Assembly: GCA_026399755.1 (NCBI GenBank)
Contig: JAPLQI010000040.1
Span: 1 to 33,852 of the forward strand
DNA length: 33,852 nucleotides
Origin: Pseudomonadota bacterium
GTDB taxonomy: Bacteria; Pseudomonadota; Gammaproteobacteria; Burkholderiales; Chitinibacteraceae
Reading direction: 5' to 3'
The position numbers and the translations under genes were made by a program. The number at the start of each line of letters is the position of its first letter. Positions within the stretch are counted from its first letter, which is position 1. Of the stretch, positions 9,677 through 30,115 are shown in pieces. The notes under the pieces are model-generated. The model searched no databases and was not told the DNA's origin. It saw nothing but the letters and a program-made list of their open reading frames with translations.

Positions 9677-9704
9677 CACGGGTCAAGGTTCATGATAACT
9701 GCCC

Positions 9705-10061: not shown

Positions 10062-10108
10062 GAAATTTCCTTCAAGGATAAGCCGATCGGGGCAAGGAAT
10101 GAGCAGGA

Positions 10109-10160
10109 GCCCAACGTGAAATTTACACACGGGAACGTGTGTAAATTTCTATTGTTTGTG
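10109..10160 (-). repeat. Possible attC site with perfect palindrome
   Basis: A perfect 13-bp inverted repeat, GAAATTTACACAC (10118-10130) and its complement (10137-10149), encloses a 6-nt loop. It is flanked on the minus strand by CACAAAC (10160-10154) and GTTGGGC (10115-10109), which fit R'' and R' cores. Position (just upstream of a cassette gene) and strand fit an attC. The perfect stem, lacking the usual unpaired bases, is atypical; a terminator or operator is the alternative. Confidence 0.4.
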
Positions 10161-15791: not shown

Positions 15792-16175
15792 ATGAACTTG
15801 AATGCAGGAATACACACGCTTGATGATTTGCCCGAAGACGTTCAGATTCCGCCTGAACTATGGGATGGGGAGAGAGGCTCAATAAGCTGGTTACTAGCCT
15901 TGGATCGCCTGAAACAATCAACTGGCATAGTCGAAGAAAAAGAATTTGCGAACTACCTTAATATTCCCTCTTCAACACTTTCAGACGTGCGTAGGGGAAA
16001 GATGGAAATCAATCCACGCATAAAATGCCAAATTTTGAACTTTCTTGGATTCCACTCGCTTACCACTGTAATGCAGCTTTTGCTCAACGAAGAACGGGCA
16101 GCAGCGTTGAAGCGTACTATCCAGCGGCAAGCAAAAAAAATTGCCGCTTCTAATGCGGCAAAGAATGGTGATTAG
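15792..16175 (+). CDS. Small helix-turn-helix protein beside GMT
   Basis: A 127-residue protein. The middle (about 45-85: EEKEFANYLNIPSSTLSDVR, RGKMEINPRIKCQILNFLG) has the spacing of a lambda-repressor-like helix-turn-helix. The C-terminal third is basic (KRTIQRQAKKIAAS). It lies head-to-head with gmtY across a palindrome-rich gap, so it is a plausible regulator of the trio (inference). AGGGG lies 11 bases before the ATG. Its stop overlaps the stop of the convergent XRE gene by 3 bases. No named family recognised. Confidence 0.6.
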   Translation: MNLNAGIHTLDDLPEDVQIPPELWDGERGSISWLLALDRLKQSTGIVEEKEFANYLNIPSSTLSDVRRGKMEINPRIKCQILNFLGFHSLTTVMQLLLNEERAAALKRTIQRQAKKIAASNAAKNGD

Positions 16176-16495
16176 ATGTTTGATTCAGGCTTTGCAACCT
16201 GTAGTTGCTCCAATAATTTCTTTTTATCGTCTTCACTCAGGTGGCTTATTACTTTGACGAGCTGAGCTTCTACTGGGCTCTCACAAAAAAAATACGCCAC
16301 CGGCACTCCTAGCTCATCGGCCATGCGCTTCATGGTGTCGTAATCGGGCGCATGTTTGCCCTTCTCATATTGATTCATACGTGCACTCGCACTGTTAGTA
16401 TCCATTCCTAACTTCAAACCTAGCTGTAGTTGAGTTAAGCCTTTGATTGTCCGCGCTTCTTTTAGGCGGGCAGGAAATGGGGATTGCAGAGGCAT
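16172..16495 (-). CDS. XRE-family transcriptional regulator
   Basis: A 107-residue protein with a clear HTH_3 domain at about 8-70 (FPARLKEARTIKGLTQLQLG, ARMNQYEKGKHAPDYDTMKR, ADELGVPVAYFF) and a short C-terminal helical tail. ATG 16495 is chosen over GTG 16507 because HTH_3 proteins usually begin a few residues before the first helix. Transcribed away from the defence operon, across a gap holding two 15-bp palindromes. This resembles controller genes of restriction-modification and phage-like modules. Autoregulation is inferred. Confidence 0.85.
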   Translation of the reverse strand: MPLQSPFPARLKEARTIKGLTQLQLGLKLGMDTNSASARMNQYEKGKHAPDYDTMKRMADELGVPVAYFFCESPVEAQLVKVISHLSEDDKKKLLEQLQVAKPESNI

Positions 16496-16523
16496 TACGT
16501 GAATCACTATGAAGGTGCAATGC

Positions 16524-16572
16524 CTAAGATTTTCTTAGTTCCATCACATAAGATATACTAAGGAATTCTTAG
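16524..16572. promoter_or_regulatory. Paired palindromic operator candidates
   Basis: Two palindromes, CTAAGATTTTCTTAG (16524-16538) and CTAAGGAATTCTTAG (16558-16572), share CTAAG-N5-CTTAG and have centres 34 bp apart. A partial copy (ATAAGATATACTAAG) lies between. They fill the gap between the XRE gene (minus) and the next plus-strand gene, so they are likely binding sites of the XRE protein controlling both promoters (inference). Confidence 0.6.
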
Positions 16573-16586
16573 TTTCAAATACTGCC

Positions 16587-16865
16587 ATGAAAAAATTCTA
16601 CCAAAATCATTTTAAAATTGAGACCTTGCAGTATCTACGCAAGGTTGGAAGCCTACCAAAAACGGCGCTACGGTTTGATGTTCACCCATCAACGCTAGCC
16701 ACCTGGCAGCGAATCGGGCTCGAAGAATTTATGAAACGTGAATCTCAACATGCACATTCAATTGAACCACTAAAATTTCAGCAGCCACATGAGTTACGCA
16801 TTCAGCGGCTAGAGCAAGAAAACGCGGTGCTACGTCAGGCGGCACGATTGTTTTTCATGTATTGA
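16587..16865 (+). CDS. Orphan transposase OrfA-like HTH/coiled-coil protein
   Basis: A 92-residue protein with a transposase-type helix-turn-helix (LPKTALRFDVHPSTLATW, about 23-40) followed by a leucine-zipper-like coiled coil (LRIQRLEQENAVLRQAARLF, about 70-89). This is the layout of IS3-family OrfA. No OrfB, programmed frameshift signal or terminal repeats follow; instead a strong terminator lies about 55 bp downstream. It is either an IS remnant or a domesticated DNA-binding protein regulated by the neighbouring operators. The ATG lies 15 bp from the second palindrome. Confidence 0.55.
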   Translation: MKKFYQNHFKIETLQYLRKVGSLPKTALRFDVHPSTLATWQRIGLEEFMKRESQHAHSIEPLKFQQPHELRIQRLEQENAVLRQAARLFFMY

Positions 16866-16918
16866 TTCGTGCTGGAAATATCGCACCTGCATCATTCGCC
16901 CTCAGATTTCTCAACATT

Positions 16919-16946
16919 AAGCCACGCAGACTTGCGTGGCTTTTTT
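16919..16946 (+). terminator. Intrinsic terminator
   Basis: AAGCCACGCA (16919-16928) pairs with TGCGTGGCTT (16933-16942) across a 4-nt loop and is followed by a run of six T (16941-16946). It separates the OrfA-like gene from the restriction operon, so the operon needs its own promoter. Confidence 0.85.
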
Positions 16947-16975: not shown

Positions 16976-17005
16976 TTGACAGCATCTGTTAGGAATGGAT
17001 ATTCT
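16976..17005 (+). promoter_or_regulatory. Sigma70-like promoter of the defence operon
   Basis: TTGACA (16976-16981) and TATTCT (17000-17005) are separated by 18 bp, just after the terminator and 29 bp before the first hsdS start. The -35 box is a perfect consensus match; the -10 box is moderate. This is the only good promoter in the gap. Confidence 0.55.
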
Positions 17006-17033: not shown

Positions 17034-17660
17034 ATGCTACTCAAATACCTTGCCAATATTTCTGCCGGGCACCCCTTTCGGGGCAAAATTCCTGAGTCAC
17101 TAGGCTCTGGAATTGTGGCTGTGCAGATGAAAGATGCCTCATCGCAAGATGGCGTCAATTGGGCTGAGTGTATAGAAACAGAGCCAACAGGTCGGCGTGA
17201 TGACTGCCTGCAAGTCGGCGATATTCTGGTCGCCGCACGAGGCAACCGCAATTATGCGGTACATATCGACGACACTCTAAACGACACTGGCAAACAAGCC
17301 ATTGCAGCGCCACAGTTTTTTATTGTGCGCATTAATGCTTCGAGCATCCTGCCCGAATACCTCTGCTGGTTTTTAAATCAGCAACCTTGCCAGCGTTATT
17401 TTGATCTGAATTCAGAGGGTACTCTTACCAAGGCCATTAAACGCAATGCTTTGGAAGAGATACATATCGCAATACCTTCGCTCGACAAACAGCAAGCCAT
17501 TGTCAAACTCGCCAATACATTGAAACAAGAGCTGCGCCTGATCGAACAGCTGCGTCGCAATGGCGAGCAAATGCTCGCTGCTATTGCCGCCGATTTGCTC
17601 GCCGATGCGACTCAAGAAAACTATCTCGTTAAGAATTTGCCATCCAAGGAAAAACCATGA
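17034..17660 (+). CDS. Half-length type I restriction specificity (HsdS-like) protein
   Basis: A 208-residue protein with one target-recognition domain and one conserved coiled-coil arm. LLKYLANISAGHPFRG starts the TRD, IPSLDKQQAIVKLANTLKQE is the typical TRD-to-spacer transition, and IEQLRRNGEQMLAAI forms the helix. Full HsdS has two TRDs and two helices, as does the downstream 379-residue hsdS. Half-size S proteins can act as homodimers or as an alternative specificity partner (known for some type I systems). The stop overlaps hsdM by ATGA, so it is translationally coupled. The start has no good ribosome site; an out-of-frame ATG lies 16 bp upstream. Confidence 0.75.
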   Translation: MLLKYLANISAGHPFRGKIPESLGSGIVAVQMKDASSQDGVNWAECIETEPTGRRDDCLQVGDILVAARGNRNYAVHIDDTLNDTGKQAIAAPQFFIVRINASSILPEYLCWFLNQQPCQRYFDLNSEGTLTKAIKRNALEEIHIAIPSLDKQQAIVKLANTLKQELRLIEQLRRNGEQMLAAIAADLLADATQENYLVKNLPSKEKP

Positions 17661-19180
17661 CCGATCAAATCAATCAAGACGATATCAATAAGGCGCTATG
17701 GGCTGCCTGCGATACGTTTCGCGGCACCATCAGCGCCGATACCTACAAAGACTTCGTGCTCACCATGCTGTTCCTGAAATACATCAGCGATGTATGGCAA
17801 GACCACTATGACGGTTACCAAGCCCAATACGGTGATGAGCCGGAGCTGATTACAGAAATGCTCAAAAACGAGCGTTTCGTGCTGCCTAAAGACGCCAGTT
17901 TCTATGTGTTGCATGACCGCCGCCACGAGCCGGGCAATGGCGAGCGCATTGATCAAGCACTGCACGCAATTGAAGAAGCCAACGGCACCAAGCTCAAAGA
18001 CGCAGGCAAAAGCGTGTTTCAAGACATCAGCTTCAATACCGACAAGCTGGGCGAAGAAAAGCAGAAAAACACCATTCTGCGCCATCTGCTGGAAGACTTT
18101 GCCAAGCCAGAGTTGAGCCTAAAGCCTTCGCGGGTCGGCACGCTTGACATCATCGGCAACGGCTATGAGTTTTTGATCAAAAATTTCGCCGCCAGCGGCG
18201 GCCAGAAAGCCGGTGAATTCTATACCCCGCCTGAAGTGTCCGAACTGATCGCCGAGCTGCTCGACCCGCAGCCGGGCGACACCATTTGCGATCCGGCCTG
18301 CGGCTCGGCATCCCTCCTAATGAAGTGTGGCCGCAAGGTGGTCAGCAATCACGGTAGTAAACAATATGCGTTGTACGGGCAGGAAGCTATTGGTTCGACG
18401 TGGTCGCTGGCCAAGATGAATATGTTCCTGCACGGCGAGGATAATCACAAAATCGAATGGGGCGACACCATTCGCAACCCAAAGTTACTGGATAAAAACG
18501 GTGACCTGATGCTGTTTGACATTGTGACCGCCAATCCACCGTTTTCGCTGGAAAAATGGGGACATGACGAAGCTGAGCACGATAAGTTCGACCGTTTCCG
18601 CCGTGGCGTTCCGCCCAAAACCAAGGGCGACTATGCCTTTATCCTACACATGATCGAAACGCTAAAACCCGGCACTGGCCGTATGGGTGTGGTCGTGCCG
18701 AATGGTGTGCTATTCCGAGGTAGCAGCGAAGGCGTTATTCGCCAAAAATTGATCGAAGAAAACCTGCTTGATGCGGTCATTGGCCTACCGGAAAAACTGT
18801 TTTACGGCACCGGTATCCCGGCTGCGATCTTGATTTTCTCGAAAGACAAATCTGACACCAATGTGATCTTTATCGATGCCAGCAATGAATGTAAAACCGG
18901 TAAAAACCAAAATGTGCTGACCGATGAGAATATCGCTAAAGTCGTTGCCACCTATCGCGATGGCGTAAGTATTGATAAATACGCGTATGTTGCGAGCTTT
19001 GATGAAATCAAAGAAAACGGCTTCAACCTGAACATTCCACGCTACGTCGATACTTTTGAAGAAGAAGTAGAAATCGACCTGCTAGCTGTGCGCGCAGAGC
19101 GTGAGCAGTTGAAAGTGCAATTGAACGTACTGGAAACTGAAATGGAGAAATATCTGCAGGAGCTAGGTTATGTTGCCTAA
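17657..19180 (+). CDS. hsdM: Type I restriction-modification methyltransferase subunit HsdM
   Basis: A 507-residue N6-adenine methyltransferase. It has an N-terminal HsdM helical domain (DDINKALWAACDTFRG, FLKYISDVW), SAM-binding motif I DPACGSASLLMK (about 212-223) and catalytic motif IV ANPPF (about 291-295). The Ala in place of the usual third Gly of motif I is tolerated in other HsdM proteins. A C-terminal coiled coil (EEEVEIDLLAVRAEREQLKVQ) should contact HsdS. With HsdS it methylates the recognition sequence and protects the host. It overlaps the half hsdS (4 bp) and the full hsdS (11 bp). Full length for the family. Confidence 0.95.
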   Translation: MTDQINQDDINKALWAACDTFRGTISADTYKDFVLTMLFLKYISDVWQDHYDGYQAQYGDEPELITEMLKNERFVLPKDASFYVLHDRRHEPGNGERIDQALHAIEEANGTKLKDAGKSVFQDISFNTDKLGEEKQKNTILRHLLEDFAKPELSLKPSRVGTLDIIGNGYEFLIKNFAASGGQKAGEFYTPPEVSELIAELLDPQPGDTICDPACGSASLLMKCGRKVVSNHGSKQYALYGQEAIGSTWSLAKMNMFLHGEDNHKIEWGDTIRNPKLLDKNGDLMLFDIVTANPPFSLEKWGHDEAEHDKFDRFRRGVPPKTKGDYAFILHMIETLKPGTGRMGVVVPNGVLFRGSSEGVIRQKLIEENLLDAVIGLPEKLFYGTGIPAAILIFSKDKSDTNVIFIDASNECKTGKNQNVLTDENIAKVVATYRDGVSIDKYAYVASFDEIKENGFNLNIPRYVDTFEEEVEIDLLAVRAEREQLKVQLNVLETEMEKYLQELGYVA

Positions 19181-20309
19181 AGGGTGGCGGTTAACCGCAT
19201 TAGATGAAATTGCTGAAGTTAATTCGCCAATAAGGTATGGCGTCGTTCAGATTGGCGAGGACACAGAAGGCGGTATTCCAATTGTTCCTATTAAATTTAT
19301 CAATACGATTAAAACCTCAAAATTACATCGTGCATCCAAGAAAATTGAAGGAAAGTATAAAAATAGCCGAATTAAAGGTGGCGATGTATTAATTTCTGTA
19401 AAAGGCTCTATTGGTGCTGTTGGCATAGTGCCTAATGGATTTGAAGGAAATATTGCGCGTGAAATTGCAAGAATTAGACCGTCCAAGAACTTCGATTCTT
19501 CTTTTATTGCTTTGCAGCTTCAAGCAGACAGTACCCAACGAAGAATTGAAAATTTAACGGTGGGTACAACTAGACGAGAGTTTTCGATTCATGCCGTTCG
19601 GAAATTCTTACTCGAGGTCCCTCCTCTCCTAGAGCAAAAGAAAATCGCCCAAATCCTCTCGACGTGGGATCAGGCTATCTCCACCACCGAGCGCTTGCTC
19701 GACCTCGCCCGCCAGCAGAAAGAAGCACTTTTGCAACAACTACTTTCCGGCAAAAAACGCTTCCCGGGATTTAAGGGGGAGTGGCTAGCTGGTCATTTGT
19801 CTGATATTGCCAAAATCGGCAAGGGAAAAGCATTAAGCAGCAAGGATTTGCTTGAGGGCGATTATCCGGTTATTGCGGGGGGTAAATCGAGTCCCTATTC
19901 GCATGGTGATTTCACGCATGAAAATGCGATCACAGTAAGTGCCAGCGGTGCATACGCGGGATACGTTTCATACCACCCTTATAAAATTTGGGCATCAGAC
20001 TGTTCCGTAGTTGTCGCCAAAGAAAATGCCGATACGCTGTTCCTTTTTCAACTACTAACCGCATTGCAAAACAAAATCTATTCACTGCAAAGCGGTGGTG
20101 CTCAGCCGCACATTTACCCTAAAGATCTTGATTCCATGAAAGTGGCAATTCCACCATTGGAAGAGCAAAAGGAAATTGCAGCGGTACTAACAAATACCGA
20201 CCAAGAAATCGAAACCCTGCAATCACAGCTTGACGGCCTGAAACAAGAGAAAAAAGCCCTGATGCAAACCCTGCTCACCGGCAAGCGCCGCGTTTCTGTT
20301 GATAAATAA
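19170..20309 (+). CDS. hsdS: Type I restriction specificity subunit HsdS
   Basis: A 379-residue S subunit with two TRDs. TRD1 covers about 5-150, followed by VPPLLEQKKIAQILSTWDQA and the first helix (ERLLDLARQQKEALLQQLLSGK). TRD2 covers about 205-330, followed by IPPLEEQKEIAAVL and a second helix ending LMQTLLTGKRR. The repeat of [IV]PPLxEQKxIA and LLxGKxR is diagnostic. It sets the bipartite recognition sequence for HsdM and HsdR. It overlaps hsdM by 11 bp and ends 13 bp before the dCTP deaminase start, so the locus continues as one operon. Confidence 0.95.
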   Translation: MLPKGWRLTALDEIAEVNSPIRYGVVQIGEDTEGGIPIVPIKFINTIKTSKLHRASKKIEGKYKNSRIKGGDVLISVKGSIGAVGIVPNGFEGNIAREIARIRPSKNFDSSFIALQLQADSTQRRIENLTVGTTRREFSIHAVRKFLLEVPPLLEQKKIAQILSTWDQAISTTERLLDLARQQKEALLQQLLSGKKRFPGFKGEWLAGHLSDIAKIGKGKALSSKDLLEGDYPVIAGGKSSPYSHGDFTHENAITVSASGAYAGYVSYHPYKIWASDCSVVVAKENADTLFLFQLLTALQNKIYSLQSGGAQPHIYPKDLDSMKVAIPPLEEQKEIAAVLTNTDQEIETLQSQLDGLKQEKKALMQTLLTGKRRVSVDK

Positions 20310-20322
20310 GAAGGAGTTACAG

Positions 20323-22110
20323 ATGAGTCTGAAATTCACTGGTACTTATGAAGAGTTAAAGCAGAAACTGGGCTCACTTACGGGCGCTTGGGATGATTCG
20401 CAACCCGGAAAAAAAGTCCTTCGCTTTAATGAAGGGGTGATGAATTGGTATGAGTCAACCGGCACAATTCAGTTTCAAGGAAAAGGTGATGGCAGAGCCC
20501 AACTGGAAGCCGAAGTGCCAAAACTGCTGTATCCAGATGAAAACACAGATAGCCTTATGGCTACTGCGGTTGCCTCTGCAAGCGCATCAGCAACCTTAAT
20601 CGTGACCAAGGCTACGGTTGAATCATTGGAGCAACGCTTCCTAACTACTGGAATCAATGAGGGTGAGTTAATTATTGGTATCGTTAGCGCGGTTGGTACT
20701 GAATCAACACGGGTTATAGGTCCTTTAATGGATAGGCTAAAAGGATTTGGCTATAGCGTAGAAGACATTCGCGTTTCATCAATTTTGCCAGCTCCCGCAA
20801 GTTCAACGAGCGAGTATGACCGAATAAAGCACTATATGCGCGAAGGTGATAATTTGCGTGAATCGAGCAAGAATAATGCAATTCTTGCCGCAGGTGTTGT
20901 CCAGCAAATTTCAGAAAAACGTGGCGTAGCACCAACAAAAAAAGCATACATTGTTAATTCTCTAAAACATCCGCGTGAAGTTGAGTTTTTGAGAAAGGTA
21001 TATGGCGATGGCTTTTATTTGATCGGTATTCATGCAGATGTTAAACGACGCCATAAGTTTTTAACTGAAGACAAAAGTTGCACTCAAGAACAAGCCCATG
21101 AGTTGATTAAGATCGATGAAGATGAGAGCTTTGATCATGGCCAAAAAACGCGAGACACTTATCATCTAGCTGATTTTTTCTTGAACTTCGGCAAGAATGA
21201 CGACCAAATTAAAAATGGTTTGCAACGTTTTCTTGAGTTGATTTTTTCCCATCCATACAAAAACCCAACATTTGACGAATTCGCCATGTTTATGGCGTTT
21301 AACAGCTCAGTTCGTTCTGGTGATTTATCACGTCAAGTGGGCGCAGTAATAAGCCGTGAGCGGCAAATTATTGCAACCGGCGCCAATGATGTCCCTCAAT
21401 CTGGTGGCGGTTTGTATTGGGCTGAAATGAACCCCGAAACTGGTGAGGTCAAAGATCGTCCTGATGGCAAAGATTACATGCGGGACATGGACTCCAACAA
21501 GCAGACTCAGGCTGAGATCATCCGCGAGATTGCAATGACACTATTGGATAAGGGCCTTGTATCAGCAGGCAAAGAAATGGATTTGGCTGCTGCACTAAAA
21601 GAAAGCAAAATTTCTGATTTGACTGAATTTGGCCGGATTGTTCACGCCGAAATGGATGCCTTGCTCTCTTGCAGCCGAGCAGGGATTCCAACGGTGGGGA
21701 GCACTTTATATTGCACCACGTTCCCCTGCCATAATTGCGCTAAACACATTATTGCTAGCGGGATTAAGCGCGTTGTTTACGTTGAGCCATATCCGAAAAG
21801 CCGAGCGCTAGAGTTTCACTCTGAAGCAATTGAGCTTAAGTCTGAATTCAATGCCGCAGCGGCAGATAATGGACTAGTGGCATTCGAGCCATTCGTCGGT
21901 GTGGGGCCAAGGCGCTTCCTCGATTTATTCTCAATGAGCCTAGGCTCTGGTTCTAAGTTGCGCAGGAAAAACAAAGATGGCGCAACCGTTGATTGGGACA
22001 AAGCAACTGCGCCGATCCGAACTCCGTTGATTCCAAAGTCGTATTTGGAGATTGAGACTGCCGCGGTTGGAATTTGGAATGATAATTTAAAGACCAAGCC
22101 ACCATTCTAA
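20323..22110 (+). CDS. Anti-phage dCTP/dCMP deaminase (AvcD/DCD family)
   Basis: A 595-residue defence enzyme. The N-terminal about 65 residues (MSLKFTGTYEELKQ, NWYESTGTIQFQGK) form a small extra domain. A P-loop-kinase-like domain follows (GIVSAVGTEST at about 119-129), then a C-terminal cytidine/deoxycytidylate deaminase domain with the zinc motif HAE (441-443) and PCHNC (468-472). DCD/AvcD proteins deaminate dC nucleotides during phage infection and starve phage replication. ATG 20323 is chosen because AAGGAG lies just before it; an upstream in-frame ATG overlaps hsdS and lacks one. It sits between hsdS and hsdR in the restriction operon with no space for its own leader, unlike avcD, which has the AvcI RNA upstream. 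Confidence 0.88.
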   Translation: MSLKFTGTYEELKQKLGSLTGAWDDSQPGKKVLRFNEGVMNWYESTGTIQFQGKGDGRAQLEAEVPKLLYPDENTDSLMATAVASASASATLIVTKATVESLEQRFLTTGINEGELIIGIVSAVGTESTRVIGPLMDRLKGFGYSVEDIRVSSILPAPASSTSEYDRIKHYMREGDNLRESSKNNAILAAGVVQQISEKRGVAPTKKAYIVNSLKHPREVEFLRKVYGDGFYLIGIHADVKRRHKFLTEDKSCTQEQAHELIKIDEDESFDHGQKTRDTYHLADFFLNFGKNDDQIKNGLQRFLELIFSHPYKNPTFDEFAMFMAFNSSVRSGDLSRQVGAVISRERQIIATGANDVPQSGGGLYWAEMNPETGEVKDRPDGKDYMRDMDSNKQTQAEIIREIAMTLLDKGLVSAGKEMDLAAALKESKISDLTEFGRIVHAEMDALLSCSRAGIPTVGSTLYCTTFPCHNCAKHIIASGIKRVVYVEPYPKSRALEFHSEAIELKSEFNAAAADNGLVAFEPFVGVGPRRFLDLFSMSLGSGSKLRRKNKDGATVDWDKATAPIRTPLIPKSYLEIETAAVGIWNDNLKTKPPF

Positions 22111-22711
22111 TGAATTCGATGACGTCCTCTCTCAATTTGTTATCTACGTGCGGAGATCATGTTTTGAACCCATTTCAACAAATAGACAATCAACTCAGCC
22201 AAACTTTTTTGAACTTTTCAAGTTTGGTGGCTGAGCTTAATTTTGAAGAGGTTTGTGAGATCTCTTTACCTTGTGATGTATCCACGCTAAATCAATATCC
22301 CCAGCTCAATACAAAAGGTATTTATTTCTTCGAAATAAATACCGAGGGTAGTGAACTCGAAGGTTTTGATGCATGGTCCGCAGATTTTGTTAGAAAGTGG
22401 ACAGATGCGCGGTTTGAAAAGAAATTTGTAAGCAATCCTAAGAAAAAAGACTAAAGGCTCACTCAACTCTTGGTACGTGGGTTCCTTTGTATATCGGCAA
22501 GTCTAAGAAAGTCGAGCAAAGGCTTCTTGAGCATTTTGGACTTGATCTAGATTCCCATACTTTTGCAATGAAGCTTAATCAAAGACGTGAATTTGAAGGC
22601 GCGAAATTAAGGATCAGCATTGTAAGGCTTGATGTTAATAACTACGACATCATTGCCCCAAGATTAGAGAAAGCGATGCGTGAACGATTCAATCCAATCG
22701 TTGGGCAATAG
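22110..22711 (+). pseudogene. GIY-YIG-type nuclease domain gene, frameshifted
   Basis: Two frames make one protein. The first (22110-22454) ends SNPKKKD and contains the GIY strand (TKGIYFFEIN). The second, open from about 22453, reads LKAHSTLGTWVPLYIGKSKK (the YIG strand), then RLLEHF and a late Glu/Asn segment LEKAMRERFNPIVG. The order GIY, YIG, Arg, Glu, Asn is that of GIY-YIG nucleases. The frames meet at an A6 run (22442-22447); one extra A restores the reading frame. This may be a real disrupting deletion, a sequencing error or transcriptional slippage. The start ATG overlaps the deaminase stop (TAATG), so the gene belongs to the operon. Confidence 0.65.
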
Positions 22712-22729
22712 CGCGACTAAAGGGAAAAA

Positions 22730-22930
22730 ATGCCCTCACTGCACGCCCCAAAATTCCAAAAAGAATACAGCGTTAAAATCACCGCGCTGATGCTGCTAAC
22801 TAACCTTTGCTGGATTTGCCTGCCGCCCGATCAGGCCTTAGCCAAACGCAGTGGCAAGCAGGATGAAGTAGTGTTGTGAGATGAGCTGAGTCAGATTTTG
22901 CATATTCGGAGATTTAGCTTCAGGGGATGA
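22730..22930 (+). pseudogene. hsdR 5'-end remnant
   Basis: From an ATG with a ribosome-like AAAGGG, the frame reads APKFQKEYSVKITAL, LLTNLCWICLPPDQALA and SGKQDEVVL, then a TGA (22877), then DELSQILHIRRFSFRG and another TGA (22928). This aligns residue by residue with the first about 67 residues of the intact HsdR at 26068 (PKFQEEYSAKIPAL, LLTNLGWTFLPPEKAMA, GGKQDEVVLRDEL), at clearly less than full identity. It is the dead start of a related hsdR whose remainder is gone, directly upstream of ravA. Confidence 0.85.
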
Positions 22931-23030
22931 AAATAGGCTTAATCACTAGAGCCTACTCGCAAAATGATGGGCGATATACAAAACCAACACTTACCGAAAA
23001 GAACAATGTACGAAAGCTCAAGGACACAAA

Positions 23031-24590
23031 ATGAACGATAAATTTAGACCCCAGCCAGATCAAAAACAGAAAAAAGAAGCTAAGCCATCGATTCAAACGC
23101 GTATTGGCGCGCTCATCAATGCGGTAAGTGCTGGCATGTATGAGCGCGAAGAGATTATAGCGGTCGCTTTGCTGGGGGCATTGTGTGGGCAAAATACATT
23201 TTTGTATGGTCCACCCGGCACGGCAAAAAGCTTAATTTCACGTCGGATTGCATGCGCTTTTGATCAACCGATATATTTCGAATACCTGATGAATCGATTT
23301 AGTACGCCAGAAGAAGTGTTTGGGCCAGTGTCGATTAAAGCCCTGAAGGAAGATCAGTACATTCGCAAGACGGATTGCTATTTACCTAAGGCTGAGTTTG
23401 CCTTTCTCGATGAGATTTGGAAATCAAGCCCAGCGATTCTTAATACGCTGTTGACTTTGATTAATGAGCACATCTTCCGTAACGGAGAATCCATTGAAAA
23501 AGCCCCCCTCAAGGCTTTAATTGCCGCCTCCAATGAGACCCCAGAGCCTAACCAAGGACTTGATGCGCTATTCGACCGCTTCATCGTCCGTCTGATGGTG
23601 GGGCCTATTTCAGAAGTGAACAACTTTGAGCGATTGCTCAATAGCAAACCCACTGAAGCAGCGATTACGGTGCCAAGCGATTTGATTGTGACACAGTCAG
23701 AATGGAATGAATGGCGGGTTTCAATTGGAAATGTTTCTTTATCAAAAGAAACACTAACGATTATTCATCTGATTCGCGCGGCGCTTGCCGAGCGATATGA
23801 AGAGCTCAAAGTCTATGTGTCCGACAGGCGCTGGCAACGTGCGGCGATGCTGATGAAAGGCGCGGCTTTTTTCAATGGGCGCAGCCAAACCAACCATAGT
23901 GATGCGCTGCTGCTCTCTCATTGCTTGTGGACTCACGCCGACAATCGTGAAGCTGTGATCGACATCGTTGAGCAAGCGATTTTGGATGCTGGACTAGATA
24001 CGGGGATTAGCTTGGCAGAGCTGGACAGAAAAAAAGACCAGTTGGATAAAGAAATCAACGAAGAGTTATATCACACCGAAGATCAATATAATTACAAGAC
24101 TGTTTCAATCGATGGTAAAGATTATTTCCAAGTTGAGTGGGACGATGGTGTTAATCAGGCTAATCGCTTTTATATTTCATCAGAGCAATACAAAAGCCGC
24201 AAAGAATTTCATCCAATAGATAAAAATGGAAATGAGCTCAGAGATTACAAAAGCTTGTTTGATGGGCAAGGCTCTTGCCATATTTATTTCAATAGGCGCA
24301 ATTCTCTGCAGTTCAAACCAGAAATAAAGCTAGAAAAGGGCTCGCAGAAGGAAAATGTTAATCGTAGACTTATTTCATCATTAAAAAATGATGTAAAGGA
24401 GATTAGAAAGAGTTTAGTTTCAATTTTGGAGCAGGTTGAGGCGCAACGATCAGGTTTTGAATCTCAACTTTATTCTGTGTTTTTCTCCTCAGAGAAAACT
24501 GCTATTGCAATACAAAGCATCAATCAACAAATCAACACGCTCAATTTACGCATTCTGGACGGCAGCCGACTGGAAGCACTATGTCGTTAA
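23031..24590 (+). CDS. ravA: RavA-family MoxR AAA+ ATPase
   Basis: A 519-residue AAA+ protein. It has Walker A GPPGTAKS (60-67), Walker B FAFLDEIWK (123-131), INEHIFRNG, a sensor segment LIAASNETPEP (163-173) and ALFDRF. These are the RavA subgroup hallmarks of the MoxR family, and the length is close to E. coli RavA. A C-terminal helical part (RRLISSLKNDVKEIRKSLVS) probably oligomerises. RavA works with ViaA as an ATP-driven chaperone-like pair; in E. coli it affects respiratory complexes and aminoglycoside sensitivity. Here it lies inside a restriction operon, just after an hsdR scar, and overlaps viaA by 10 bp. A defence role is inference from context. Confidence 0.88.
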   Translation: MNDKFRPQPDQKQKKEAKPSIQTRIGALINAVSAGMYEREEIIAVALLGALCGQNTFLYGPPGTAKSLISRRIACAFDQPIYFEYLMNRFSTPEEVFGPVSIKALKEDQYIRKTDCYLPKAEFAFLDEIWKSSPAILNTLLTLINEHIFRNGESIEKAPLKALIAASNETPEPNQGLDALFDRFIVRLMVGPISEVNNFERLLNSKPTEAAITVPSDLIVTQSEWNEWRVSIGNVSLSKETLTIIHLIRAALAERYEELKVYVSDRRWQRAAMLMKGAAFFNGRSQTNHSDALLLSHCLWTHADNREAVIDIVEQAILDAGLDTGISLAELDRKKDQLDKEINEELYHTEDQYNYKTVSIDGKDYFQVEWDDGVNQANRFYISSEQYKSRKEFHPIDKNGNELRDYKSLFDGQGSCHIYFNRRNSLQFKPEIKLEKGSQKENVNRRLISSLKNDVKEIRKSLVSILEQVEAQRSGFESQLYSVFFSSEKTAIAIQSINQQINTLNLRILDGSRLEALCR

Positions 24591-26071
24591 GTCGGGTCAA
24601 GTTTGCTGCCAAAGCGGCTAATGACGATATTTTTGCGAAATTAGATGCGCAAATTACTCAGCAGCCCTCAGTAAAGCAGCACATTGAACAGCAGATTCAG
24701 CGGTGGGAACGACATGCATCAGTGACCTTGGCGGATAGCAATCCATTCACTAAATACGAAAAACAGCTCAATCGATATATTGCACAGTTTCAATCTGAGG
24801 GTATGCAAAGCCCGTCTTTTTCCCTAGCGATAGAGGACTATATTGGCTTTTGTCGAGCAAGTAAATTGCCAGCAAATGAGCAATTTTGGCGTAATTCTAC
24901 CGAGACCATTGCTCAAACTGATAAGGATGGTCTTACCGAGGTCGACTTTTCAGCATCAAGCCAGCTCTTGATCAATGAGTGGCAAAGAGCTTTGGATAAA
25001 GCAAATGCTCAGTGGGAATTAGCAAAAATAGCCCAGATGCGTGAGGCATTGCTCAGCCAATTGGAAAGTTGGCTGGATGTAATAGCACAACTGGCGCGTC
25101 AACTCTCCAGCCTAGGGCTAGATCTAGGTCTTTTATTTGATCTTTCAAACGGCGAACTTTCTCCACAGGATATTGAGGCTTTTAAGCGCTGGCTGGATTA
25201 TTTGAAACAAAGTGAAGGCGTTAAGGCGCTGTGTGATTTACTCGGCAAAATGCGGCAGCTCGAGTTTTCGGAACGTCTTGAAAAAGTCCTTGTTAATCAG
25301 GCGAGAACGATTAATGTGCCTGACTTTAATTCCCGCGAAGAAATTGTTGGCATAAGGCTTGGACGTGATATTGAGCATGCGCTACCCAGTGAATTGGCGT
25401 TGTTATCCGATCCCGATACCGCTCTTTTATTTGATCTCAAATTTGTTGAATCACGCTTAATGTGCTTTGAAATGCAAGGCCAGCAAGCTGAACAAGAAGA
25501 GTTCTCGCAAGAGGAAGAGCGGACGATTTCGGAGCAGGACAAACTTGGGCCAATGGTGATTTGCGTCGACACAAGTAGCTCGATGCAGGGAATGCCAGAA
25601 ACAATCGCCAAGGCAGTGACCTTATTTATGGCTTGCAAAGCCAAAGAGCAAAGTCGAGCTTGTTATCTAATTAATTTCTCAACTGGTATTCAATGCCTCG
25701 ATTTGAGCTTGGGTCTAGAGATGGAAAATCTCATCGATTTTTTGCGCATGTCTTTTCATGGTGGCACCGATCTGGCTCCTGCGCTGAATCATGCCCTAGC
25801 AGTTATGCGAGAAGACAATTATCAAAATGCAGATTTGTTGATCATTTCTGATTTTGTAATGGGTAGTCTTCCGCATGCTATTCAGCAGCGAGTCGAAGAG
25901 CAGCGTGCCTTTGGCAATCAATTTTATTCACTCGTGGTTGGTTCTACTTTTATGTCTGAAAGACTTGCGACTTTATTTGATCACGAATGGATTTTTAACC
26001 CGCACACAAGCCAGATTCATGAGCTGATTTCGTTTAATGAACGAATGTCCGAACTAAGAGTATCCGTATGA
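24581..26071 (+). CDS. viaA: ViaA-family VWA-domain protein
   Basis: A 496-residue partner of RavA. The N-terminal about 300 residues are helical (QRWERHASVTLADS and following). The C-terminal von Willebrand A domain has the MIDAS motif DTSSS at 330-334, GGTD and a later ISDF, all in register with ViaA, and the DHEWIFNP segment typical of its end. ViaA binds RavA and a substrate through the VWA domain. It overlaps ravA by 10 bp and hsdR by 4 bp (ATGA), so all three are translationally coupled. The length fits the family (E. coli about 480). Confidence 0.88.
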   Translation: MSLSRVKFAAKAANDDIFAKLDAQITQQPSVKQHIEQQIQRWERHASVTLADSNPFTKYEKQLNRYIAQFQSEGMQSPSFSLAIEDYIGFCRASKLPANEQFWRNSTETIAQTDKDGLTEVDFSASSQLLINEWQRALDKANAQWELAKIAQMREALLSQLESWLDVIAQLARQLSSLGLDLGLLFDLSNGELSPQDIEAFKRWLDYLKQSEGVKALCDLLGKMRQLEFSERLEKVLVNQARTINVPDFNSREEIVGIRLGRDIEHALPSELALLSDPDTALLFDLKFVESRLMCFEMQGQQAEQEEFSQEEERTISEQDKLGPMVICVDTSSSMQGMPETIAKAVTLFMACKAKEQSRACYLINFSTGIQCLDLSLGLEMENLIDFLRMSFHGGTDLAPALNHALAVMREDNYQNADLLIISDFVMGSLPHAIQQRVEEQRAFGNQFYSLVVGSTFMSERLATLFDHEWIFNPHTSQIHELISFNERMSELRVSV

Positions 26072-29000
26072 ACCAGCCATTTACGCCCAAATTCCAAGAA
26101 GAATACAGCGCCAAAATCCCCGCACTGACGCTATTAACCAATTTGGGTTGGACGTTTCTACCGCCCGAAAAAGCAATGGCATTGCGTGGAGGCAAGCAAG
26201 ATGAGGTGGTTTTACGTGATGAATTGCGCTGCGCTTTACAAGCTCGGCGTTTTCGCTTCGAAGGTCGTGAGCAAGCGCTGTCTGACAAGGCGATTGATAA
26301 GCTGATCGCCGAAGTTTGTAGCCCGGCGCTCAATGAAGGCTTGGCGCATGCGAATGAAAAGCTCTACAACCACATGCTGTATGGCATTTCGGTCACTGAG
26401 TTTGTAGATGGCAAGAAAGCCAACCCAACGATTGCGTTGATCGACTGGCAAACGCCAGAAAACAATAGCTTTCTGTTTACAGAGGAATACAGCATTACTC
26501 GCTCTGGCGGGATCGACTCGCGCCGCCCAGATATTGTGGGTTTTGTGAACGGTATTCCGCTGGTGATCATCGAGGCCAAGCGCCCTGATGGTAATGCAAA
26601 GAAAGGTCCAACGATAACCGAAGGGATTTCACAATCGTTACGCAACCAGCGCCACGATGAAATACCGCGTCTGTTTGCCTATGCCCAACTGATTTTATCA
26701 ATCAACGGCACAGATGGGCGCTATGGTACGTGTGGTACGCCAGCTAAGTTTTTTGCAGCATGGCGGGAAGAAGATATTTCTGATGCGCAGATGTATGCGA
26801 TCAAAAACAAAACAATTAGCCAGCAACAGACTGATACCCTTTTTAATAATCGTCCAGAAAAGGTTTTGACGTGGTATCAATCGCTGCTGGCGGGCGGTGA
26901 GCTTGCCGTAACAGGGCAAGATAAATTGCTGATTAGCCTGTTGATGCCTGCTCGCCTACTGGAAATGGTTCGTTATTTCACCTTGTATGATAAAAAAGTG
27001 GGCAAGATCGTCGCCCGCTATCAACAGGTGTTTGGCATTAAACGCTTGATAGATCGGATCAATACCCGCCGCGCTGATGGCGGGCGCGAAGGCGGCGTAA
27101 TTTGGCATACCACGGGTTCGGGCAAGTCGTTCACGATGGTGTTCTTGAGCAAGGCACTAATCCTGCATGAATTGCTCAAACAATGCCGCATTGTGGTTGT
27201 GACCGACCGCGTCGATTTAGAAACCCAGCTCTCCAAAACGTTTGCTTCAGGTGGTGAACTATCGGGTAAAAAAGATAAAGAGTTAGCCATTGCGACATCA
27301 GGCAAGCGCTTAGCTGAGCAAATTAGCACTGGCACCGAGCGTATTATTTTCTCCCTGATCCACAAGTTCAATACCGCGACCAAGTTGCCCGAATGCGTTA
27401 ACACTAGTGCAGACATCATTGTGTTGATTGATGAAGGGCATCGAAGCCAAGGTGGCGAGAGCAATATCCGCATGAAGCAGGCGATGCCCAATGCCGCCTT
27501 TGTGGCTTTTACGGGTACGCCCCTGCTAAAAGACGACAAAACCACGAGCAAATTTGGCCCTATTGTTCATGCCTATACCATGCAGCGGGCGGTGGAAGAT
27601 GAAGCGGTTACCCCGCTGCTGTATGAAGAACGCATCCCTGATCTCGATGTCAACGAACGTGCTATTGATACTTGGTTTGAACGTATTACCGAAGGATTAA
27701 CGACCGAACAAAGAGCCGATTTAAAACGTAAATTTGCGCGTAAAGGGCAGATTTACAGTGCGGAAGATCGCATTCGATTGATTGCGCTCGATATCGCTAA
27801 TCACTTTGTTAAGAATATCGACGATGGCCTGAAGGGGCAGCTAGCTTGTGACAGCAAAGCATCCGCCATCAAATACAAAAAATATCTCGATGAAGCTGGG
27901 TTGTTTGAATCTGCCGTAGTGATTAGCGCACCCGATACCCGCGAAGGTAATTCGGATGTTGATGAAGCCACGATGCCAGAAGTGACGCAGTGGTGGAAAG
28001 AGAATGTGGGTTCGCAGGATGAACAGGTTTATACCAAGCAAATCATTGAGCGTTTTGATAAGGATGATTCCCTCAAACTGCTGATCGTGGTGGATAAACT
28101 ACTCACAGGCTTTGACGAGCCTAAAAACACCGTGCTCTATATCGACAAGCCATTAAAAGAACACAATCTGATTCAAGCGATTGCTCGTGTTAATCGATTG
28201 CACCCGCTGAAAAAGTTCGGCTTGTTAATCGACTATCGCGGCATTTTGGCTGAGCTGGACACCACCATTGCCAAATATCAGGATCTCGCATCGCGCACCC
28301 AAGGCGGCTACGACATTAATGATATTGCAGGGCTGTATAACCCGATGAGTACCGAATATAAACGCCTGCCTCGTTTATACAAGCAGCTCTGGTCTATTTT
28401 CGAAAACGTTAAAAACAAGAATGATATCGAACAATTGCGGCAAGTATTGGTGCCGAAAACCGAAGATCGAAACGGTGAACTGGTTGATGTGAACCAGAAA
28501 GTGCGTGATGATTTTTACGAAGCATTAACTGAGTTTTCTGCTTGCCTTAAGGTTGCATTGCAATCGGCTACATTCTTTGAGGATAAGAGCTTTAGTGATG
28601 CGGATCGCCAGCACTACAAAGAAGCGGTGAAAGAGTTCTCTAGCCTCCGCATCCTCGTAAAACAGGATTCGGGGGAGATGATTAACTACGATGATTACGC
28701 CGTGCAAGTGAAGAAATTGCTCGACAAGCATGTAGTTGGTGTTGAAGTTCGTGAGCCTGGTGGGACCTACGAAGTGGGTAAAATGGGCAGCAAACCCAAG
28801 CCAGAAGATTGGTCTGAAGAAAAAACGCGCAACGAAACCGACATCATCAAAACCCGTGTTGCCAAGATGATTGAGCAGGAGCTACGCGATGATCCTTATG
28901 CGCAAGAAGCTTTCTCAAAGCTACTCCGCGATGCGATTAGCGAAGCAGAAAAACTGTTTGATCATCCGCTCAAACAATACCTGCTATTCCATTCGTTTGA

Positions 29001-29358
29001 AGAAAAGGTCCAGCAGCGCCAGTTAGATGAGTTGCCCGATGCATTTGCGGGGAACCGCCATGCTCAAGCGTATTTCGGCATCTTCAAGAAAACATTGCCC
29101 GAAGTGTTTGCGATTAGCGATGCTCAAGTTGTCGATAAATGGGTGGGACTGGCATTTCAAATCGACCAAATGGTTGAACAATCCGTCGCCGAGCATTCAA
29201 TTAATCCGCAAAACATCGAGTCGAATATTCGTAAGCAGCTGTTACCTATGCTGTTCACCGAATGCAAAGCGATTGGCGCAGGGATGGATCAAGCCAAGGC
29301 GATGGTTGAATGGGTGGTGCAGATTACCCGCGTTGGTTTGAATGCCGCAGGGGTTTGA
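26068..29358 (+). CDS. hsdR: Type I restriction endonuclease subunit HsdR
   Basis: A 1096-residue motor and nuclease subunit. The N-terminal PD-(D/E)xK nuclease has SRRPDI (Asp155) and IIEAKRPDG (Glu169/Lys171). SF2 helicase motifs follow: Walker A TTGSGKS (about 350-356), DEGH (457-460), AFTGTP (482-487), and LLTGFDEP plus IQAIARVNR further on. The C-terminus is helical and binds the methyltransferase. It translocates DNA and cuts at a distance when both strands of the HsdS site are unmethylated. All catalytic motifs are intact, in contrast to the dead copy at 22730. The ATG overlaps the viaA stop by 4 bp. Confidence 0.95.
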   Translation: MNQPFTPKFQEEYSAKIPALTLLTNLGWTFLPPEKAMALRGGKQDEVVLRDELRCALQARRFRFEGREQALSDKAIDKLIAEVCSPALNEGLAHANEKLYNHMLYGISVTEFVDGKKANPTIALIDWQTPENNSFLFTEEYSITRSGGIDSRRPDIVGFVNGIPLVIIEAKRPDGNAKKGPTITEGISQSLRNQRHDEIPRLFAYAQLILSINGTDGRYGTCGTPAKFFAAWREEDISDAQMYAIKNKTISQQQTDTLFNNRPEKVLTWYQSLLAGGELAVTGQDKLLISLLMPARLLEMVRYFTLYDKKVGKIVARYQQVFGIKRLIDRINTRRADGGREGGVIWHTTGSGKSFTMVFLSKALILHELLKQCRIVVVTDRVDLETQLSKTFASGGELSGKKDKELAIATSGKRLAEQISTGTERIIFSLIHKFNTATKLPECVNTSADIIVLIDEGHRSQGGESNIRMKQAMPNAAFVAFTGTPLLKDDKTTSKFGPIVHAYTMQRAVEDEAVTPLLYEERIPDLDVNERAIDTWFERITEGLTTEQRADLKRKFARKGQIYSAEDRIRLIALDIANHFVKNIDDGLKGQLACDSKASAIKYKKYLDEAGLFESAVVISAPDTREGNSDVDEATMPEVTQWWKENVGSQDEQVYTKQIIERFDKDDSLKLLIVVDKLLTGFDEPKNTVLYIDKPLKEHNLIQAIARVNRLHPLKKFGLLIDYRGILAELDTTIAKYQDLASRTQGGYDINDIAGLYNPMSTEYKRLPRLYKQLWSIFENVKNKNDIEQLRQVLVPKTEDRNGELVDVNQKVRDDFYEALTEFSACLKVALQSATFFEDKSFSDADRQHYKEAVKEFSSLRILVKQDSGEMINYDDYAVQVKKLLDKHVVGVEVREPGGTYEVGKMGSKPKPEDWSEEKTRNETDIIKTRVAKMIEQELRDDPYAQEAFSKLLRDAISEAEKLFDHPLKQYLLFHSFEEKVQQRQLDELPDAFAGNRHAQAYFGIFKKTLPEVFAISDAQVVDKWVGLAFQIDQMVEQSVAEHSINPQNIESNIRKQLLPMLFTECKAIGAGMDQAKAMVEWVVQITRVGLNAAGV

Positions 29359-30115
29359 AGTGAACGTCGCTATCAAGTCCGTCCTCAACAAAGCAAGTCT
29401 GTGTTTCAGTTACGCCGACGAGCAAATCTGTTTTGAACGACTGCCACGATCAGGTAACGCGAGCAAAGTTTTAATTAAGGTTTTGCCAGATTGTCGTGTG
29501 CAAATCAGCGCGCCAGAAACTGCGAGCGATGAGGAAGTCATCGCCGCAGCCAAGCAGCGCGCCCGATGGATTTATCAGCAACTACGCGAGTTTGGTAGCC
29601 GCTTAGAACATGTTCGTCCACGGCAGTACATCAGCGGCGAAAGCCACTACTATCTTGGCAAGCAGTACGTGCTGAAGGTGATCGAAAACCCAGATGTAAA
29701 ACCATCCGTAAAGTTGCTACGCGGAAAGATCGAAGTCACGGTGCGGGAAAAATCAGCAGAGAAAATTAGTGCACTGCTTGCCGATTGGTACAAAGTGCGA
29801 GCTAAAGAAGTATTCGCTCGCAGGCTAGACGCAATGTTGGAACAAGCATTGTGGGTGGGCGAAAAGCCACCACTACGAATCCTAACCATGCAAACCCAAT
29901 GGGGCAGTTGCTCACCAGCGGGACGATTAACGCTCAATCCCCACTTAGTTAAAGCGACTAGAGATTGTATTGATTACGTGATCTTGCACGAGCTATGCCA
30001 TTTAGCCGAACACAATCACAGCGAGCGATTCTATCGGCTAATGGGGCAAGTGATGCCGCAGTGGGAAAAAGTAAAAAGACGGCTCGATGGGATGGCGAAT
30101 ATATTACTGAGTTAA
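29342..30115 (+). CDS. YgjP/DUF45-family zinc metallopeptidase
   Basis: A 257-residue protein with HELCH at 216-220 followed by a nearby acidic/His segment (AEHNHSERF), the DUF45/YgjP metal site. Upstream, QTQWGSCSPAGRLTLNP (184-200) is the conserved strand of the same family. Such genes commonly follow hsdR in type I loci; a protease role in limiting restriction or maturing a partner is unproven. The ATG at 29342 lies 17 bp inside hsdR; GTG 29360 is an alternative start. It is the last operon gene, ending about 100 bp before the terminator. Confidence 0.85.
   Translation: MPQGFEVNVAIKSVLNKASLCFSYADEQICFERLPRSGNASKVLIKVLPDCRVQISAPETASDEEVIAAAKQRARWIYQQLREFGSRLEHVRPRQYISGESHYYLGKQYVLKVIENPDVKPSVKLLRGKIEVTVREKSAEKISALLADWYKVRAKEVFARRLDAMLEQALWVGEKPPLRILTMQTQWGSCSPAGRLTLNPHLVKATRDCIDYVILHELCHLAEHNHSERFYRLMGQVMPQWEKVKRRLDGMANILLS

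What the first reader, a model, noticed from the sequence alone, without database searches (positions are those of the whole stretch)
17034..30115. Composite defence operon: type I restriction with an embedded dCTP deaminase and RavA-ViaA pair
Nine or so plus-strand genes run with overlaps or tiny gaps from one promoter to one terminator: half hsdS, hsdM, hsdS, dCTP deaminase, GIY-YIG gene, hsdR scar, ravA, viaA, hsdR, DUF45 peptidase. Restriction, nucleotide depletion and a RavA-ViaA motor pair share one transcript. Overlaps such as hsdM/hsdS, ravA/viaA and viaA/hsdR (4-11 bp) point to coupled expression. RavA-ViaA is known as a stress/chaperone pair, not as a restriction partner. The arrangement could be a layered or cooperating system, e.g. 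a deaminase backup if restriction fails. Functional cooperation is inference.
Basis: partly seen in the sequence, partly recalled or inferred. Interest (0 to 1): 0.78.

Follow-up and report, generated by a model that had tools for sequence, protein, structure and literature searches.

The report
Restriction operon with swappable defence cargo
A bacterial DNA-restriction operon carries extra genes in a slot that related operons often fill with other anti-virus systems; here the slot holds a nucleotide-destroying enzyme and a RavA-ViaA protein-remodelling pair, which makes that pair a candidate new anti-virus module.

Summary
The gene order is real: an Iodobacter type I restriction operon with half hsdS, hsdM, hsdS, dCTP deaminase, a frame-split gene (weak GIY-YIG match), a 5' hsdR scar, ravA, viaA, hsdR and a YgjP-type peptidase. 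It is not unique: Iodobacter violaceini (L009) keeps the order but lacks about 827 bp with the split gene and scar. In related operons the hsdS-hsdR gap holds other cargo, for example Gabija in a third Iodobacter, AbiD, or CBASS-type genes, or nothing. Defence cargo at this place is already in print (PMC12255303, PMC11411939). I did not see in print RavA-ViaA as such cargo, or this deaminase's extra N-terminal domain, shared with two TIR proteins, one overlapping a partial hsdS. RavA kin outside Iodobacter: none of 12 loci has restriction genes; one pair lies in a type I-F CRISPR transposon with a SIR2 gene, one beside HEPN and GmrSD genes, others look ordinary. Best reading: separate layered modules exchanged by recombination. 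RavA-ViaA as defence is a testable prediction; cooperation with restriction is not shown.

The parts
16976..17005 (+). promoter-like site (TTGACA with 16 or 18 nt spacer)
   Evidence: 10 of 12 matches; consensus match only
17034..17660 (+). half-length hsdS; also found upstream of hsdM in relatives
   Evidence: PF01420 E 1.4e-4, PADLOC Specificity_I 4.7e-19; same place in L009, L094, L095, L098, L105, L108 and others
17657..19180 (+). hsdM, N6-adenine methyltransferase
   Evidence: PF02384 3.8e-102, PF12161 2e-21
19170..20309 (+). hsdS, two specificity domains
   Evidence: PF01420 7.6e-49, two stretches; 38% aa identity to the L009 copy over 375 aligned codons
20323..22110 (+). anti-phage dCTP deaminase (P-loop NTPase-like part plus deaminase part) with an extra N-terminal part of about 110 aa
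   Evidence: NF041025 466 bits against cut-off 400; PADLOC dCTPase 1.1e-169, PDC-S35 8.7e-8 over the N-terminus
20323..20586 (+). N-terminal domain of the deaminase, shared with TIR (CAP12-type) proteins of the PDC-S35 family
22110..22711 (+). gene split in two frames (22110-22454, 22451-22711); second piece weakly GIY-YIG; largely absent from L009
22730..22926 (+). scar of an hsdR 5' end, stopped at 22877-22879
   Evidence: 81% identity to the hsdR starts of L009 and L098, 77% over a shorter stretch to the window's own hsdR
23031..24590 (+). ravA, MoxR-clade AAA+ ATPase with AAA_lid_8 and a beta-rich C-terminal part
   Evidence: PF20030 1.7e-51, AAA_lid_8 6.3e-22; NF010054 338 bits, below its cut-off 681; the four Foldseek matches at E 0.001 or better are E. 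coli RavA
24581..26071 (+). viaA, VWA protein with intact DxSxS
   Evidence: PF13519 5.6e-8, NF008230 251 bits against cut-off 500; D330, S332, S334 invariant in 5 of 5 aligned
26068..29358 (+). hsdR, restriction subunit
   Evidence: PADLOC REase_I 1420 bits, PF04313 and PF18766
29342..30115 (+). YgjP-like zinc peptidase; a gene of this kind follows hsdR in most relatives read
   Evidence: PF01863 4.4e-59

Best explanation
This is a type I restriction-modification operon whose gap between hsdS and hsdR is a cargo slot for anti-phage modules. The flanks (half-hsdS, hsdM, hsdS on one side, hsdR and the YgjP peptidase on the other) stay, while cargo is gained, swapped and lost, most likely by homologous recombination in the flanking hsd genes (inferred from uneven divergence and the scar). 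Here the cargo is a dCTP deaminase, a broken gene, and RavA-ViaA. Likely working: the HsdM-S-R complex restricts unmodified DNA (family knowledge). The deaminase, once triggered by infection, destroys dCTP/dCMP and starves phage replication (known for AvcD relatives, inferred here). RavA-ViaA is most likely a further separate module: an AAA+ ring and a VWA adaptor that bind and remodel a phage or host complex (inferred; substrate unknown). Shared transcription gives shared dosage rather than a joined machine. The confidence given is for the slot with separate cargo; for the step 'RavA-ViaA itself is defensive' alone I would say about 0.5. The passenger rival below differs only on that step.
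For: Other operons with related hsdR carry other cargo at the same place: Gabija in Iodobacter G003 (GajA 3.5e-236, GajB 1.3e-273), AbiD plus PDC-S21 and a KAP ATPase PDC-S20, CBASS-type SMODS plus SLATT in an E. coli, NucS-like plus Abi. In the class sample 15 of 369 genomes have such an hsdR (40-75% identity besides the window); of the 14 besides the window, 10 could be read from hsdS to hsdR, 7 with cargo and 3 empty. Recombination: window against L009 dS is 0.53 deaminase, 0.52 ravA, 0.71 viaA, 0.83 hsdM, but 1.86 hsdR and 1.31 ygjP; the window's hsdR and ygjP are nearer to the Gabija operon (dS 0.82 and 0.65). The scar marks a former hsdR start after the deaminase-GIY piece. Low dN/dS of deaminase, ravA and viaA. 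RavA kin: L012 lies in a type I-F CRISPR-associated transposon (TnsA, TnsB, TnsC, TniQ, Csy3, Csy4 type genes) with a SIR2 gene; L011 lies between a HEPN gene and a GmrSD pair.
Against: RavA-ViaA is found between hsdS and hsdR only in Iodobacter (2 species); 0 of 32 related operons read carry it or the deaminase. More distant kin in Acinetobacter (7 loci) sit beside ordinary genes (three read by eye), as do pairs in two Salinivibrio, an Azoarcus and a Bacteroides plasmid record and in E. coli. L126, inside the closest clade, also sits among ordinary genes. No phage assay, no transcript data. Some slot cargo (YecA, RhuM, Fic, DUF3800) is not proven defence, and the slot is empty in several operons. 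dS values near or above 1 are rough.
Confidence: 0.72

Rival explanations
1. Deaminase, RavA and ViaA form one three-gene system: the MoxR/VWA pair holds the deaminase in check or releases it, as proposed for MoxR-vWA conflict systems with variable effectors. The pair would have swapped effectors over time (deaminase or GIY-YIG, HEPN, NYN).
For: L009 kept deaminase and ravA-viaA while losing what lay between them, with similar dS. Elsewhere an effector-like gene sits just upstream of ravA: HEPN in L011, 11 bp gap; NYN-LOTUS in L010. The deaminase has only 13 bp in front of it, no room in a gap for an AvcI-type RNA antitoxin, and may need some other control. Concept in PMC7159879 (passages).
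Against: The scar suggests that the deaminase and RavA parts came from different operons. 0 of 12 non-Iodobacter RavA loci have the deaminase nearby, and 0 of 17 other deaminase loci have ravA or viaA (flanks of differing length). L012, L125 and L126 show no shared effector.
Confidence: 0.15
2. RavA-ViaA services the restriction complex itself, for example assembling, disassembling or quenching HsdR.
For: 4-bp overlap viaA/hsdR in both Iodobacter operons; E. coli RavA-ViaA is described as a chaperone of other complexes (PMC10585395, search listing).
Against: Closely related hsdR operons carry Gabija, other cargo or none. RavA kin lack hsd genes in 12 of 13 loci.
Confidence: 0.08
3. RavA-ViaA is a passenger: a general stress or membrane pair caught by recombination, with no role in defence.
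For: Ordinary neighbourhoods in Acinetobacter, Salinivibrio, Azoarcus, Bacteroides, E. coli and L126; E. coli RavA-ViaA acts on respiration and aminoglycoside sensitivity (search listings).
Against: Much slot cargo with a recognisable family is defence; the L012 and L011 contexts; low dN/dS in both Iodobacter copies.
Confidence: 0.25
4. The deaminase is a guard of the restriction complex, as PrrC is of EcoprrI: its extra N-terminal domain docks on the complex and lets the deaminase loose when a phage blocks restriction.
For: Position after hsdS; extra N-terminal domain absent from the deaminase relatives seen and shared with a TIR protein whose gene overlaps a partial hsdS. PrrC is embedded in a type IC locus and is activated when EcoPrrI is inhibited (passage of PMC12707154).
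Against: The other TIR protein with this domain, in G281, stands alone. The domain's fold and binding are unknown.
Confidence: 0.12

Closest known systems
RptR-controlled type I RM with embedded DarTG2, E. coli EPEC (PMC12255303, passages)
   Same: Defence module between hsdS and hsdR, metallopeptidase gene after hsdR; [quoted passage not shown]
   Different: Other cargo; the passages read show no deaminase or RavA-ViaA there; RptR was not searched for here
TgvAB inside the V. cholerae VPI-2 type I RM (PMC11411939, passages)
   Same: Two-gene cargo embedded in a type I operon, shown to act on phages by itself
   Different: Cargo is GmrSD-like
Anti-phage dCTP deaminase / AvcD (NF041025; AvcID in PMC10511110, passages)
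   Same: NTPase-like plus deaminase parts; HAE and PCxxC invariant in 6 of 6 aligned
   Different: Extra N-terminal domain; no space for an RNA antitoxin gene in the 13-bp gap in front
E. coli RavA-ViaA
   Same: Gene pair and domain order; the four significant PDB folds are RavA
   Different: 48% identity in the ATPase part and 22% in the C-terminal part; below both NCBIfam cut-offs; here it sits in a restriction operon
MoxR-vWA conflict systems (PMC7159879 and PMC12839542, passages)
   Same: MoxR ATPase with a VWA partner next to effector-type genes
   Different: No VMAP, iSTAND, FtsH or beta-propeller third part recognised
PrrC inside EcoprrI (passage of PMC12707154)
   Same: Effector gene embedded in a type I locus as a second line
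   Different: PrrC is an anticodon nuclease activated by inhibition of the RM enzyme; no such link is shown here

Membership tests
Type I restriction-modification system | hsdM, hsdS and hsdR of matching families in one operon | tested here: met
Type I restriction-modification system | methylation and ATP-dependent cleavage activity | not testable with these tools
   needs methylome and transformation assays
Anti-phage dCTP deaminase (NF041025) | score above the curated cut-off and zinc-binding deaminase motifs | tested here: met
   466.1 against 400 bits; H441, E443, C469, C472 invariant in 6 of 6
AvcID type III toxin-antitoxin | RNA antitoxin (AvcI) with the deaminase | tested here: inconclusive
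   only 13 bp between hsdS and deaminase; no Rfam match in the window, but I did not check that Rfam holds AvcI, and an RNA inside hsdS is not excluded
RavA (NF010054) and ViaA (NF008230), E. coli type | curated equivalog cut-offs | tested here: not met
   338 of 681 bits; 251 of 500 bits
RavA-ViaA, wide sense | MoxR AAA+ with AAA_lid_8 next to a VWA gene, RavA fold | tested here: met
   the model's ATPase core is poor
MoxR-vWA ternary conflict systems | third component (VMAP, iSTAND, FtsH-like or beta-propeller) | tested here: not met
   no such Pfam match in the operon proteins; the bpMoxR match alone does not tell, as E. coli also rings
Embedded defence cargo of type I RM | same hsd flanks with different defence cargo in relatives | tested here: met
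Embedded defence cargo of type I RM | cargo protects against phage | not testable with these tools
   no assay

The most novel reading that the evidence does not exclude
A clade of RavA-ViaA, distinct from the E. coli pair, is a mobile anti-phage module that travels in type I restriction slots and in CRISPR-associated transposons, and uses MoxR/VWA remodelling to sense infection and set loose swappable effectors (deaminase or GIY-YIG, HEPN, NYN, SIR2).
Probability: 0.25. Interest if true: 0.8.

Novelty: new variant of a known kind. Interest (0 to 1): 0.55.

Why it matters
Cargo embedded in type I operons can prove to be active defence (TgvAB, passages). RavA-ViaA is a well studied pair whose cellular role is still debated (my reading of the listings); a defence branch of it would give a new class of anti-phage AAA+ machine and a new way to ask what the E. 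coli pair does. The N-terminal domain shared by a deaminase and TIR proteins could be a common trigger or docking part.

Tried and rejected
Considered and dropped: (a) the split gene and scar as a late insertion in the window: L009 keeps short matches to both ends of the segment, so loss in L009 is simpler. (b) A separate promoter for ravA: no + strand promoter-like site between 22711 and 23031, though consensus scans are weak. (c) A known fold for the deaminase N-terminus: no Pfam match up to E 10, no solved structure below E 0.18, and the model there has pLDDT of about 30-70; I thought of a TBP-like fold (recalled) and did not test it. (d) ViaA kin in viral contigs: 8 stretches matched a pattern, none was confirmed. 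(e) N-terminal domain in plasmids: no match at E 0.01. (f) The RavA model's ATPase core is poor (pLDDT under 50 for residues 81-195), so its C-terminal part and the sequence carry the weight. (g) The RavA tree has long branches and an unstarred, open fork (87/99) around the seven-row clade. (h) N6 methylase genes occur in 10 of the 11 genomes with RavA loci; I could place few of them relative to ravA, and rely on the loci themselves. (i) Listeria and Bernardetia plasmid records hold a RavA-like ATPase with no VWA partner annotated; in the Listeria one an Abi-family gene lies about 1.6 kb further on; not pursued. (j) RavA-like matches in phage records: 21 of 50,697, none covering 80% of the query; not pursued. 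(k) Paper search found nothing; one search listed 20 of 103 papers, none of those with both RavA and 'CRISPR-associated transposon'.
Full report
What is there. The window lies in contig C119 of a 4.95 Mb genome. Profile searches confirm half hsdS, hsdM, hsdS, deaminase, ravA, viaA, hsdR and a YgjP-type peptidase, all on the + strand. The deaminase most likely starts at ATG 20323. The gene after it is split between two frames, and only its second part resembles GIY-YIG, weakly (E 0.005, below the cut-off); that part has one match at 41% identity in 72,556 plasmid records. Between 22730 and about 22926 lies the 5' end of an hsdR with an early stop. A promoter-like site stands before the first gene; inside the operon the scan shows one weaker + strand site, at 21138, and five + strand terminator-like sites inside ravA, viaA and hsdR, with promoter-like sites fewer and terminator-like sites more numerous than in shuffles.

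Is the arrangement conserved? In I. violaceini (L009) the same order is found: half hsdS, hsdM, hsdS, deaminase, ravA, viaA, hsdR, peptidase. Aligned base by base, L009 lacks window positions about 22143-22969, that is most of the split gene and the scar, but keeps short matches on both sides, so L009 looks like a deletion form. dN/dS between the two is 0.11 for the deaminase, 0.09 for ravA and 0.15 for viaA, against 0.06 for hsdM and 0.57 for hsdS. The cargo is thus held by selection while hsdS has changed (38% identity). In 61 genomes near the window, full-length RavA of this kind occurs in 2 (window and G004); three more have partial matches of 25-34% identity. Beyond Iodobacter I found no ravA-viaA between hsdS and hsdR. 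A re-check with the window's own proteins gave: hsd or deaminase genes in 1 of 13 RavA loci (L009); ravA, viaA or hsd genes in 0 of 17 deaminase loci; ravA, viaA, deaminase or the split gene in 0 of 32 related or more distant type I operons read. So the embedded deaminase, too, is seen here only in Iodobacter.

A cargo slot. I compared operons with related hsdR. The family is common on plasmids (650 of 72,556 records at E 1e-50). Within the genus, 3 of 9 genomes have an hsdR above 90% identity. The third, G003 (L098), carries a Gabija pair at the place of deaminase-ravA-viaA. In a class-wide sample 15 of 369 genomes matched at E 1e-180 or better; besides the window eight have 54-75% identity and six 40-41%. 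Of these 14, 10 could be read from hsdS to hsdR: seven have cargo (L105 AbiD plus PDC-S21; L108 Fic; L109 KAP ATPase PDC-S20; L111 RhuM; L114 OLD-like ATPase plus DUF3800; L116 DUF3800; L117 an AAA ATPase plus a small gene) and three are empty (L110, L112, L115). Four are cut by contig ends; of these L106 shows Septu genes and L107 a Fic piece next to hsdR. G047 (L099) from the relatives list is empty. Of the 60 plasmid records listed for hsdR I opened five: YecA (L093), NucS-like plus Abi (L094), AbiZ-like plus a weakly SIR2-like protein, with hsdS broken by another ORF (L095), a GmrSD-like gene with hsdS broken up among transposase-like genes (L096) and a degraded copy of the L094 type (L097). 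Of the 60 E. coli records listed (550 matched) I opened six: one empty, two with YecA, one with YecA plus a cold-shock-domain protein, one with DUF2188, SMODS and SLATT (CBASS-type), and one truncated with an IS before hsdR. More distant type I operons of other Iodobacter genomes hold a DarT and a macro-domain gene (L102; L103 looks the same by eye), an AAA gene plus a small gene (L100), FRG-domain and Abi-like genes (L101, the Abi call by eye) and a DUF1016 nuclease (L104).

Recombination. Divergence is uneven: window against L009 has dS 0.52 to 0.71 for the cargo, 0.83 for hsdM, but 1.86 for hsdR and 1.31 for the peptidase (values near or above 1 are rough). Window against the Gabija operon has hsdM 1.04, hsdR 0.82 and peptidase 0.65. 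So the right flank of the window, not the left, is nearer to an operon with other cargo. The scar resembles the hsdR starts of L009 and L098 (81%) better than the window's own (77%, shorter). The simplest story is that an older operon ended deaminase-GIY-hsdR, and that a second piece with ravA-viaA-hsdR was joined within it (inference).

The deaminase. It passes the curated cut-off of the anti-phage dCTP deaminase family, and its model resembles dCMP deaminases and a kinase-like NTPase. The relatives seen in other genomes, viral contigs and the 40 of 77 plasmid records listed align only from about residue 101-123 of the longer frame; the part before that is extra. It matches the start of the PADLOC family PDC-S35 (E 8.7e-8). 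That family matches in 12 of 369 genomes, but only three of those matches reach its start: the window, G113 and G281; a search with the domain itself gives the same 3 of 369. The G113 and G281 proteins have a CAP12-type TIR domain as second half. In G113 the TIR gene overlaps a partial hsdS by 11 bp, with an M78-peptidase gene, a DUF4411 gene and an hsdR-type gene further on and no hsdM found; in G281 it stands without hsd genes. So one of two TIR relatives is type I linked: suggestive, no more. By analogy with PrrC, embedded in a type I locus and set off when restriction is inhibited (passage of PMC12707154), the domain could be a trigger or docking part; this is a guess.

RavA-ViaA. The Walker-type ATPase motifs (GxPGTAKS, LDE) are invariant in 12 of 12 aligned and the DxSxS of ViaA in 5 of 5. 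The C-terminal part is beta-rich with long helices as modelled, and the four significant PDB matches are E. coli RavA, though with TM-scores of only about 0.4; in that part sequence identity to E. coli RavA is 22%. The tree puts it with L010, L011, L012, L125 and L126 (support 87/99, not starred) apart from Acinetobacter and E. coli. Contexts of the seven rows of that clade: two Iodobacter restriction slots; L012 inside a type I-F CRISPR-associated transposon, with a SIR2 gene and a small HTH gene as the other cargo (Csy2 match just below its cut-off, ends and CRISPR array not looked for); L011 between a HEPN gene and a GmrSD pair; L010 after a NYN-LOTUS gene, otherwise ordinary; L125 after an unidentified 329-residue protein; L126 among ordinary genes. 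So four of seven, counting the two Iodobacter copies apart, are in defence or mobile settings. Of seven plasmid-collection records opened for RavA (89 matched), five show a pair in ordinary neighbourhoods (two Salinivibrio, Azoarcus, Bacteroides, E. coli) and two an ATPase without an annotated VWA partner (Listeria, Bernardetia). There is no control set, so this is no enrichment test.

Literature. The RptR paper describes DarTG2 between hsdS and hsdR and calls the site a potential recombination hotspot (passages). The TgvAB paper shows that such cargo can work alone (passages). PMC10511110 gives the AvcID mechanism (passages). RavA-ViaA as defence or slot cargo was not seen in the listings of searches, nor in the passages found in PMC7159879, PMC7911831 and PMC12839542; the DefensePredictor main text has no mention of RavA, ViaA, MoxR or VWA. 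The Payne preprint on embedded systems is cited by these papers and was not held here. Subscription papers and supplements were not searched.

Verdict. The kind of arrangement, a defence slot in a type I operon, is known. What I did not see in print is the RavA-ViaA cargo, its second appearance in a CRISPR transposon, the deaminase's extra domain and the scar that records the assembly. Whether the parts cooperate is open.

Noticed in passing
L012:1025-18808: Type I-F CRISPR-associated transposon whose sizeable cargo is a 1281-aa SIR2-like protein and a RavA-ViaA pair.
   Followed up: partly
window 17034-17660: A half-length hsdS before hsdM recurs in this operon family; it may form an alternative specificity subunit.
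   Followed up: no
G000:C17:7796-9340 (locus L092): The same genome has a second deaminase of this family (33-37% identity) near an integrase-like gene (by eye), without the extra N-terminal domain.
   Followed up: no
window 8298-15660: Minus-strand block with PF13009 Integrase_2, a phage-type integrase and unknown genes: may be a multi-integrase mobile element beside the operon.
   Followed up: no
window 16172-16942: RstR-like repressor on the - strand and a short gene with a weak IS3-transposase match, followed by a terminator-like hairpin just before the operon.
   Followed up: no
window 30326-33838: Minus-strand RTX adhesin with cadherin/VCBS repeats and a type I secretion signal domain, convergent with the operon.
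   Followed up: no
L087:4056-10715: Partial hsdS, TIR protein with the shared N-terminal domain, M78 peptidase, DUF4411 gene and hsdR-type gene in a row.
   Followed up: partly
L131:371-10034: E. coli PM22 type I operon with a CBASS-type SMODS/AGS_C synthase and a SLATT_6 protein between hsdS and hsdR.
   Followed up: partly
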